Positions 25,336 through 28,300 of a stretch of 64,000 nt of DNA are shown piece by piece. Every line of letters starts with the position of its first letter. Position 1 is the stretch's first letter. Source of the DNA: Streptomyces capillispiralis (GTDB lineage Bacteria > Actinomycetota > Actinomycetes > Streptomycetales > Streptomycetaceae); assembly GCF_007829875.1 (NCBI RefSeq), contig NZ_VIWV01000001.1, positions 8,010,001-8,074,000 of the forward strand, in the 5' to 3' direction. Under the pieces are notes generated by a model. The model ran no database searches and had not been told where the DNA came from. It saw only the letters and a list, made by a program, of their open reading frames with translations. The position numbers were made by a program, and so were the translations under genes.

Positions 25336-28300
25336 TCACCTGCCCGGGCGTCGCGCCCTCAGCAGGGAGGCGATGTCGTCGTCCACGGTGAGGTACTGGC
25401 CGGACAGCGGATCGGCTTCACCGGCGGCCAGGCGGACGAGCATCCGCGCCGAACGACCGGGGTCGACGAGCCGCCGGCTCTCGCGCTGGGCCAGCAGCCA
25501 TGCCCTGACCTCGTCGCTCCACCGCTCCCCGGTCACCCCGCCCTCGATCTGCCGCTGGGTGATGCCGAGGTCGACCAGACCGGGGTGGTAACTGAACACC
25601 GACACTCCCGTCCCCTCCAGTTCGGGCGCGAGGTTCTCACCCAGCTTGATCAACGCGGCCTTCGACACGGAGTACCCGGAGACGAGGGGCCACCGGTGCT
25701 TCCCCGCCGAGCTGACGATGTTGACGACACGGCCACCGCGCCGCTCGATCATGCCCGGCAGGACGGCACGGCACGCGCGGGTGCTGCCGCGGAGGTTGAC
25801 CTCCATGGCGTGCCACCACGCGTCGTCGTCCGTCTCCCACAGGGGACCTGCCGGGCCGGTCACTCCCGCGTTGTTCACCAGGACGTCGACCGCGTCGAAC
25901 CGTTCACCGACCGCCGCCAGCAGCCGCGGCATCGCGTCGCGGTCACCCAGATCCGACGGCAGCGCCAGGACGTCGGCCTGCCGCTCCCGCAGCTCGTGCG
26001 CGAGGCGGTCGAGCGTGCCCGCGTCCCGCCCGGTGACCACGAGGTTCGCCCCGGCCTCCGCCATCGCCGTCGCGAAGAGCTGCCCCAGCGCTCCGGTGGC
26101 CCCCGTCAGCAGGACGGTCCGTCCCCTCAGGGGGAGCACCGGCTCGGGCACCGCGGGTGCCTCGTGCACGCGCTCGACGACGCCCACCGCAGGCCGCGGC
26201 GTCTCGGCCGGCACGGTGATCTGCGTGTGCAGGTACCGTGCCAGGGCGTCCGCCGTGGGGTGGTCGAAGACCACGGTGGCCGCGAGGGGCTGTCCCATCA
26301 GCTTCTCGACCCGGTTCCTGAGTTCGAGAGCGGTCAGCGAGTCGAACCCGATCTCGAAGAAGTTGCGGTCCGCCTCGACGTCCTCCGTGGTGGTGAACCC
26401 GAGGACCGCCGCGACCTCCTCCGCCACCGCCGACTCCAGCAGCTTCGCCCGCCCGTCCTCGTCCAGCGGGGCCAGCAACTCCCCGAGCGGCCTCACGGCT
26501 TCCGCGCGGCCCGACGGCCTCGCCGCGTCCGCCGTCTGACGCACATGGTCGCGCAGCAGCGGCGTGAGGGGCGACGCCTCGGTGTCCGACAGGTTCCGGG
26601 TGTCCAGCCGCAGCGGCAGCAGGACCGGGTTGTCCGCTTCCAGCGCCGTGTCGAAGGCCGTCAGCGCGTCGGCGGTGGCGAGGGGAGCGATGCCCAGCCG
26701 GGCGAGCCGGCGCAGGTCGCCGCTGTCGAGATGGCCGCTCAGTTCGCTGCGGTCCTCCCACAGCCCCCACGCCAGGGACAGTCCCGCGTGTCCCGCCGCA
26801 CGGCGCCGCTGCACGATGGCGTCGACACACGCGTTGCTCGCCGCGTAGTTCGCCTGCCCGGCGCTGCCCCACCAGCCCGCGGCCGACGAGCACACCACGA
26901 ACCACTCCAGCGGGAGATGCCGGGTCAGCTCGTCGAGATGGTGCACGGCGTCCACCTTCGACGGCAGCAGGTGCTCCAGCCCCTCCCACACCAGCTGGCG
27001 GAAGGTGCCGTCCCGCGTCGTGCCGGCCGCGTGGACGACACCGCGCAGCGGACGGTCCGCCGGTACGGCCGACAGGACGCTCGCCAGCCGGTCGCGGTCG
27101 CCGACGTCACCCGCCTCGACCGACACCGTGGCACCGAGGCCACGCAGTTCGTCCGCCAGCCCCGCCATGCCGGGAGCCCGCTCGCCGCGCCGGCTGAGCA
27201 GGACGACGTGTCCCACACCATGTGCGCGGACCGCGTGCCGCGCGAGCGCCGAACCCACCACGCCACCCGCTCCCGTCACCAGCAAGGAAGCGGTCGCCCA
27301 GTCGGTGCCGGGGTCCGCCGCGCGGGCGCCGGCCGTCGCCTGTCCGGGAGCGTCCGCCGCCGCCGTGACCAGCCGGGGAACGTACGCCTCGCCGGCCCGG
27401 AGAGCGATCTGCGGCTCGTCGTCCGCCAGGAGTGCCGCCAGCCCGTCGGCCGACGCGGGGTCCGCGTCGACATCGGCCAGCAGCAGCCGCCCCGGGTGCT
27501 CGGTCTGCGCCGTGCGGAGCATGCCCCACACCGCGGCCTGCGCGGGGTCGGCGCCCCCTGACTGCCCGTCCGTCATGACCGCGTCCCGCGTGACGACGAC
27601 CAGACGCTCCCGCGGATCCCGCTCCTCGGCCAGCCACGCCTGCGTCTCCGTCAGGACGGCGGCCAGCGCGGCGCGTACACGGGCGGGGACCGGCGCGTCA
27701 CCGTCGAGGCACCTCAGGACGCGCACGTCCCCGCCGTCCCGCGCCACGCGGGCGGCGACCGTGTCCGCCTCGGCGTCCCCGGCCAGCACGAGGTACCGGT
27801 GCGCCGGACCGTCGGCCGTCCGCGGCGCCGCCGGGACCGGCACCCACCTGACTTCGTGGAGGAACTGCTGGGACGTGCTCCGCAGGGCCCCGAGTTCGTC
27901 CGGCCCCATCACCCGCAGGGTCAGGCCCTCGGCCGTCATCACCGGATTGCCGTCCGGGTCCCATGCGGTGAACGCCACGGTGTGGTCACCGGTGCGCACG
28001 AGCCTGACGCGCAGGCGTGCGGCGCCGTGCCGGTGGATCTCCACACCCGTCCAGGAGAACGGCAGCCGCAGTCCCGCGGCGTCCGGCAGCACTCCCGGCA
28101 CCGCCAGCGGATGGAGGGCCGCGTCGAGCAGGGCCGGGTGCAGCAGATAGGTGTGCGCTTCCTGCCTCACGTCCTCCGGCAGTTCGACCTCGGCGAAGAC
28201 CTCCCCGTCACCGCCCAGGACGGCGCCGGCGCCCCGGAAGGCGGGTCCGTAGCGCAGGCCCTGCCATGCGAGGTCGGCGTACGCCCCCTCCAGGTCGAGG

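What the first reader, a model, noticed from the sequence alone, without database searches (positions are those of the whole stretch)
25336..26150. PKS ends in a classical SDR domain instead of a thioesterase
After the last ACP (Ser4471) a linker of about 60 residues leads into a complete classical short-chain dehydrogenase: TGATGALG, NNAG, SSAG and YSVSK. Known terminal reductases of PKS/NRPS are larger extended-SDR types; this one looks like a FabG or hydroxyacyl dehydrogenase. Possible roles: reduce the thioester to an aldehyde, oxidise the 3-hydroxy of the last intermediate to a 3-keto thioester, or reduce another carbonyl before release. With no TE and only a stand-alone type II thioesterase nearby, this would be a rare chain-ending logic.
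Basis: partly seen in the sequence, partly recalled or inferred. Interest (0 to 1): 0.8.

Follow-up and report, generated by a model that had tools for sequence, protein, structure and literature searches.

The report
Classical-SDR reductive release domain on PKS
A Streptomyces polyketide assembly line ends in an unusual small reductase whose relatives sit beside, or are fused to, enzymes that activate carboxylic acids, so it probably frees the product as an aldehyde instead of the usual acid or ring.

Summary
The 4,838-codon PKS ends ACP-linker-SDR, with no TE. The SDR (window 25336-26136) is complete and classical. It is intact in all four PKS orthologues found, about as conserved as the KS domains. 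It is not the usual extended-SDR thioester reductase: both TR models miss it but find a canonical TR elsewhere in this genome.

The SDR belongs to a sharply bounded clade of 25 members. Four are PKS-fused. Five are separate genes just after a ligase-loaded PKS. Eleven adjoin an AMP-forming acyl ligase. Three are fused to the C-terminus of such a ligase. Two sit with acyl-CoA-oxidase-like genes. A ligase lies within 2 kb in 14 of 25, against 5 of 104 other SDRs. Six loci carry a chorismate-lyase-like gene, ligase and SDR, where no beta-carbonyl is expected.

Best explanation: the SDR reduces the ACP thioester with NADPH and releases the chain as an aldehyde (or alcohol), probably hepta-2,4-dienal. 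No activity was shown. This is a new variant of reductive release, with precedent in malonyl-CoA reductase SDR3.

The parts
25336..39852 (-). Type I PKS, 4838 codons (probable start at Met35, 39750): KSq-AT-ACP / KS-AT-DH-KR-ACP / KS-AT-DH-KR-ACP / SDR
25336..26136 (-). Terminal classical SDR domain (residues 4573-4838); Asn4686, Ser4714, Tyr4727, Lys4731; Arg4609 at the NADP+ position
26137..26217 (-). Linker between last ACP and SDR (residues 4546-4572)
26221..26448 (-). Last ACP (residues 4469-4544), Ser4505
26653..27735 (-). KR of module 2, Ser/Tyr/Asn motif intact in four orthologues
27883..28719 (-). DH of module 2; His and Asp kept in four orthologues; HxxxD for HxxxG in three, HxxxG in S. 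calvus
28903..29835 (-). AT of module 2 (HAFH; malonyl-type by a recalled motif)
30157..31431 (-). KS of module 2 (DTACSSS)
31513..31737 (-). ACP of module 1
32053..33045 (-). KR of module 1
33163..34002 (-). DH of module 1 (HxxxGxxxxP and Asp kept)
34153..35088 (-). AT of module 1 (HAFH; malonyl-type by a recalled motif)
35407..36678 (-). KS of module 1 (DTACSSS)
36748..36972 (-). Loading ACP
37153..38106 (-). Loading AT (YASH; methylmalonyl-type by a recalled motif)
38443..39723 (-). Loading KSq (DSAQSSS, Cys replaced by Gln)
40583..41344 (+). Stand-alone thioesterase (type II kind), kept in all four orthologous loci
23959..25251 (+). PucR-type regulator (HTH_30, GGDEF_2), kept in all four orthologous loci

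Best explanation
The terminal SDR is a chain-release thioester reductase built on the classical SDR fold. After module 2 the ACP carries a C7 dienoyl chain: a propionyl starter from the KSq module plus two malonyl units with KR and DH, i.e. (2E,4E)-hepta-2,4-dienoyl-ACP. NADPH bound in the SDR attacks the thioester carbon, the ACP thiol leaves, and the chain is freed as hepta-2,4-dienal, possibly reduced once more to the alcohol. The divergent type II thioesterase would be an editor of stalled chains. Shown here: architecture, intact catalytic residues, conservation, clade membership, and physical coupling of the clade to acyl-activating enzymes. Inferred: the reaction, its product and the electron count. 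AT specificities rest on recalled motifs.
For: (1) No TE. The SDR directly follows the last ACP and is as conserved as the KS domains (92.8% against 91.8-92.5% in S. calvus; most other domains 78-91%), with all catalytic residues kept. (2) Relatives couple to carboxylate activation in the same order, activator then SDR. There are three ligase-SDR fusions with no carrier domain detected. Eleven loci have an adjacent ligase (one a C-terminal fragment only); in 9 of the 11 the SDR lies on the same strand directly downstream, its first matched residue 8-40 bases after the ligase stop. Five SDR genes directly follow a [ligase-ACP-KS-AT-DH-KR-ACP] PKS. (3) Enrichment: ligase within 2 kb in 14 of 25 clade loci against 5 of 104 control SDRs (4 of 76; 1 of 28 within 1.5 kb); Fisher p 1.7e-8, not corrected for kinship. 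(4) Six loci carry chorismate-lyase-like gene + ligase + SDR (PF01947 22.1 bits over cut-off 22 for L106). A 4-hydroxybenzoyl thioester has no beta-keto or beta-hydroxy group. (5) Precedent: in Roseiflexus malonyl-CoA reductase SDR3 reduces the thioester (PMC10470521, passages). Profile A1 fits SDR3 (96 bits) better than the aldehyde-reducing SDR1 (64.5 bits). Arg4609 aligns with its NADP+-binding Arg616, and WPxxSxY (4721-4727) with its YPNRSDY (743-749). (6) Arg4609 is in 25 of 25 clade members, as expected for NADPH.
Against: No activity or product is known. SDR3 of malonyl-CoA reductase donates a proton through Tyr743 and Arg746; here these positions are Trp4721 and Val4724, so that detail is not shared. 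Foldseek and profile hits are generic: actinorhodin KR, FabG and hydroxyacyl-CoA dehydrogenases score as well as malonyl-CoA reductase. Two clade members (L104, L133) sit with an acyl-CoA-oxidase-like gene or remnant, and L133 also has KASIII, ACP and KASII genes, where a ketoreductase role is possible. In L136 only the C-terminal part of a ligase was found. In L099 the ligase is convergent with the SDR, and in L098 the SDR match starts 729 bases after the ligase stop. Seven of the eleven ligase-adjacent loci are one subclade, so independent lineages are about eight. Type II TE could hydrolyse the chain instead.
Confidence: 0.62

Rival explanations
1. The type II thioesterase hydrolyses the chain to hepta-2,4-dienoic acid, and the SDR acts on something else, for example on the free product or on another carbonyl.
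For: A thioesterase gene lies beside the PKS in all four orthologous loci.
Against: Type II TEs are usually editors (recalled). The SDR is tethered to the ACP and among the best-conserved domains. Relatives without any PKS pair with acyl ligases.
Confidence: 0.13
2. The SDR oxidises a 3-hydroxyacyl-ACP to a 3-keto thioester before release (hydroxyacyl dehydrogenase role).
For: Hydroxyacyl-CoA dehydrogenases are among the better profile matches (2et6). Three of four orthologues have HxxxD instead of HxxxG in DH2, so DH2 might be slow.
Against: DH2 keeps His and Asp in all four and is canonical in S. calvus. Arg4609 points to NADPH rather than NAD+. Chorismate-lyase/ligase relatives have no 3-hydroxyacyl substrate.
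Confidence: 0.08
3. The SDR is an extra FabG-like ketoreductase, backing up or replacing a KR.
For: FabG and actinorhodin KR are close structural and profile matches. L133 has SDR beside KASIII, ACP and KASII genes.
Against: Both KRs have intact active sites in four orthologues. The clade scores at least 286 bits against 175 or less for the next SDRs in 41 relatives and carries its own invariant residues. Its usual partners are acyl ligases.
Confidence: 0.1
4. The SDR is inactive or purely structural.
For: No direct evidence; only that SDR-fold structural domains exist in megasynthases (recalled).
Against: Catalytic residues are intact in 24 or 25 of 25 clade members, and conservation equals that of KS domains.
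Confidence: 0.04

Closest known systems
Terminal thioester reductase (R/TR) domains of PKS/NRPS, e.g. argimycin ArpPIII
   Same: Placed after the last ACP in place of a TE. Expected to release the chain with NAD(P)H as an aldehyde (argimycin TR: PMC5300972, passages).
   Different: R domains are extended SDRs (PMC2835699, passages). TIGR01746 and PF07993 do not match this domain, though they find a canonical TR in the same genome.
Malonyl-CoA reductase, SDR3 domain (Roseiflexus, PMC10470521)
   Same: SDR domain reducing a thioester to an aldehyde with NADPH. Same Ser/Tyr/Lys and NADP+ Arg positions; WPxxSxY aligns with YPNRSDY.
   Different: MCR has four SDR domains and an extra domain that binds malonate, and its proton donors Tyr743/Arg746 are Trp and Val here.
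Plant benzaldehyde synthase (PMC8924275)
   Same: Rossmann-fold subunits of about 30 kDa that reduce benzoyl-CoA to benzaldehyde with NADPH (passages).
   Different: A heterodimer of two dissimilar subunits in peroxisomes; no relation closer than the superfamily was tested.
Carboxylic acid reductase (CAR, A-T-R; recalled)
   Same: The ligase-SDR fusions L134, L135 and L140 would do the same overall reaction.
   Different: No carrier domain was found, and the reductase part is a classical SDR.
NCBIfam NF045894 PKS_plus_SDR
   Same: Names a type I PKS with an SDR, and the window protein scores far over its cut-off.
   Different: The model's SDR is the ordinary KR; it ends at the ACP and does not cover the terminal SDR.

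Membership tests
Classical SDR superfamily | TGxxxGxG, NNAG, Asn-Ser-Tyr-Lys, about 250 residues | tested here: met
PKS/NRPS terminal reductase (TR, extended SDR) | match to TIGR01746 / PF07993 | tested here: not met
   no match at this locus at E up to 0.01; canonical TR found at 7,995,463 of the same genome (307.5 bits); PF07993 also absent from the Pfam hits
PKS/NRPS terminal reductase (TR, extended SDR) | position after the last ACP, no TE | tested here: met
Thioester-reducing SDR (works-like class) | NADPH-dependent conversion of acyl thioester to aldehyde | not testable with these tools
   needs an enzyme assay; indirect support from neighbours and the alignment to MCR SDR3
FabG / KR | belongs with ketoreductases rather than a separate clade | tested here: inconclusive
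   clade members score 286 bits or more, the best other SDRs in 41 relatives 175 or less and controls up to 221; one long-branch outgroup row (L141) fell inside the clade, and FabG was not placed on the tree
FabI-type enoyl reductase | Tyr-6x-Lys motif (recalled) | tested here: not met
   YSVSK is Tyr-3x-Lys
Malonyl-CoA reductase | tandem SDRs, extra domain, YxxRxxY | tested here: not met
   single SDR; WPLVSGY in place of YxxRxxY (motif from PMC10470521)

The most novel reading that the evidence does not exclude
A Streptomyces-centred clade of classical SDRs is an independently evolved carboxylate-to-aldehyde reductase module. It occurs free-standing behind acyl ligases, fused to them as a CAR-like enzyme without a carrier domain, and fused to the end of a PKS as a reductive release domain unrelated to the usual TR.
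Probability: 0.5. Interest if true: 0.78.

Novelty: new variant of a known kind. Interest (0 to 1): 0.6.

Why it matters
If true, a single-domain SDR of about 265 residues releases aldehydes from a PKS. It would be a smaller part than the usual TR for engineering aldehydes, alcohols or amines, and a marker for finding aldehyde pathways that TR models miss. The ligase-SDR fusions would be a compact type of carboxylic acid reductase. The idea is directly testable with one didomain and one ligase-SDR pair.

Tried and rejected
NCBIfam PKS_plus_SDR looked like an existing name for this architecture; piecewise scans show that its SDR is the KR. Foldseek of the AlphaFold model (pLDDT 89) gave only generic SDRs. 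Paper searches found no description of a PKS ending in a classical SDR or of a ligase-SDR fusion. These cover open-licence PMC papers only, and I saw listings and abstracts apart from six papers read in passages (PMC8924275, PMC10470521 with outline, PMC8949500, PMC2835699, PMC11727611, PMC5300972), so absence in print is not shown. A dead DH2 was considered because of HxxxD; S. calvus has HxxxG and His/Asp are kept in all four, so it was not adopted. L141, a 175-bit SDR beside what looks like a nucleotidyltransferase gene (my reading of its translation), falls inside the clade on the tree with a long branch but was treated as outside because of its score. A promoter/terminator scan near the PKS stop found nothing.

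Full report
The minus-strand ORF 25336-39852 encodes a 4838-residue PKS. Pfam and motif positions give KSq-AT-ACP, then two KS-AT-DH-KR-ACP modules, then a terminal SDR. The loading KS has DSAQSSS, so it is a KSq. The loading AT has YASH and the two extender ATs HAFH; by recalled rules this means a methylmalonyl-derived propionyl starter and two malonyl units. The SDR covers residues 4573-4838. There is no TE domain.

Orthologues. Between them only three genes are kept: the PucR-type regulator, the PKS and the divergent thioesterase; no other window gene matched the G378 or G211 flanks fetched. So the product is probably made by the PKS alone. In all four the KSq, KS, AT, DH, KR, ACP and SDR motifs are intact. 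DH2 reads HxxxD in three and HxxxG in S. calvus, with His and Asp kept. The SDR is 92.8-96.6% identical to the window copy; in S. calvus it equals the KS domains (91.8-92.5%), while most other domains are at 78-91%.

Not the usual release domain. TIGR01746 (Thioester-redct) and PF07993 were searched over the whole own genome. Neither matched the terminal SDR at E up to 0.01; both found a canonical TR at 7,995,463-7,996,524, about 14 kb before the window. R domains are described as extended SDRs (PMC2835699, passages). NF045894 PKS_plus_SDR does not describe this domain either: its SDR is the KR and the model ends at the ACP.

A bounded clade. A profile of 15 relatives (A1) was run on a genus sample (13 of 392 genomes match at E 1e-60 or better), a family sample (10 of 394), a class sample (2 of 394 genomes, 1 of 137 genera) and 41 relatives (two hits above 300 bits). 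With three named Streptomyces records (L002, L003, L004) this makes 25 distinct members. They score 286 bits or more. The next SDRs in the 41 relatives reach 175 bits, and 104 control SDRs span 132-221 bits. Residues kept in 24-25 of 25 members but rare in the 104 controls are Gly4666-Pro4667 (12 and 9), Trp4672 (9), Trp4721 (2), Val4729 (3), Asn4740 (3), His4756 (2), Trp4778 (1) and Trp4785 (0).

What the clade keeps company with. Four are PKS-fused. Five are separate genes directly after a PKS of about 2,400 residues; the one scanned (L004) begins with an acyl ligase, carries an ACP and ends KS-AT-DH-KR-ACP, and the other four are 76-81% identical to it. In L004 a HutH-like ammonia lyase precedes it, and L100 has an 87% identical gene, hinting at a urocanate-type starter. 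Eleven adjoin an AMP-forming ligase: L098, L099, L101, L103, L105, L106, L107, L121, L131, L132 and L136. In 9 of these 11 the SDR is on the same strand directly downstream, with 8-40 bases between the ligase stop and the first matched SDR residue; L098 has 729 bases and L099 is convergent. In L136 only the ligase C-terminal part was found. Three are fused to the ligase C-terminus, in two Streptomycetaceae genera and one genome of another family (L134, L135, L140), and no carrier domain was detected in them. Two (L104, L133) sit with an acyl-CoA-oxidase-like gene or remnant; L133 also has KASIII, ACP and KASII genes. Six ligase loci carry a chorismate-lyase-like gene before the ligase (L103, L106, L107, L121, L131, L132); L101's contig ends inside the ligase gene. 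The lyase assignment rests on PF01947, 22.1 bits against a cut-off of 22 for L106, and homology for the rest.

Controls. A ligase profile built from ten of these ligases was searched around 76 SDRs outside the clade (4 of 76 within 2 kb) and around 28 SDRs (1 of 28 within 1.5 kb). The clade has 14 of 25, Fisher p 1.7e-8, or 14 of 16 if the nine PKS-linked members are set aside. The profile contains clade ligases, relatedness is not corrected for, and seven of the eleven ligase-adjacent loci form one subclade; on the tree about eight lineages are independent. In that tree the PKS-fused group stands next to ligase-adjacent L098 (94/92) and then L099 (83/80).

Mechanism. What the free-standing, ligase-fused and PKS-fused members share is an acyl group activated as a thioester (or adenylate). 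With a chorismate-lyase-like gene the acid should be 4-hydroxybenzoate, which offers no beta-carbonyl, so reduction of the acyl carbonyl is the simplest common reaction. A solved precedent exists: in Roseiflexus malonyl-CoA reductase, SDR3 reduces malonyl-CoA to the semialdehyde and SDR1 reduces the aldehyde (PMC10470521, passages and outline). Profile A1 scores SDR3 at 96 bits and SDR1 at 64.5. Arg4609 (25 of 25) aligns with Arg616, which binds NADP+; Ser4714, Tyr4727 and Lys4731 with Ser731, Tyr749 and Lys753; and Trp4721-Pro4722 with Tyr743-Pro744. The paper's proton donors Tyr743 and Arg746 are not kept. Plant benzaldehyde synthase is a second precedent: two Rossmann-fold subunits of about 30 kDa convert benzoyl-CoA to benzaldehyde with NADPH (PMC8924275, passages). 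Against this, general profile and fold matches do not single out thioester reductases: KRs and hydroxyacyl dehydrogenases score as well.

The likely product is therefore hepta-2,4-dienal or the dienol, an inference from domain content. The thioesterase may edit or may compete. I put 0.62 on reductive release; the rivals are listed separately. Novelty: a new variant of reductive release, possibly a separately evolved reductase module. The searches for prior description found none but cover only open-licence papers.

Noticed in passing
L134 (G986) 8377-10743, L135 (G822) 9610-12141, L140 (G1061): Acyl ligase fused directly to a classical SDR with no carrier domain: candidate compact carboxylic acid reductases.
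   Followed up: partly
L103, L106, L107, L121, L131, L132: Operon-like set: chorismate-lyase-like gene, AMP-ligase, SDR. L106 and L101 also have a metallo-beta-lactamase-fold gene, and a 41% relative of it lies 3.3 kb beyond the thioesterase in G895 (L130 5712-6626).
   Followed up: partly
L004 939-10804, L100 1401-11031: HutH-like ammonia lyase + ligase-loaded one-module PKS + SDR: predicts an imidazolyl-pentadienal-type product from histidine. L002, L003 and L102 carry an aminotransferase and an O-methyltransferase instead.
   Followed up: partly
G000:C1:7977905-7996524 (about 14 kb before the window): A large PKS region ending in a canonical thioester reductase, so the same genome has both kinds of reductive terminus.
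   Followed up: no
L133 10424-12373, L134 3514-5259, L104 8808-9104: Acyl-CoA-oxidase-like proteins recur next to some clade members; their role is unexplained.
   Followed up: no
window 28603-28632: HxxxD instead of HxxxG in DH2 in three of four orthologues; effect on dehydration unknown.
   Followed up: partly
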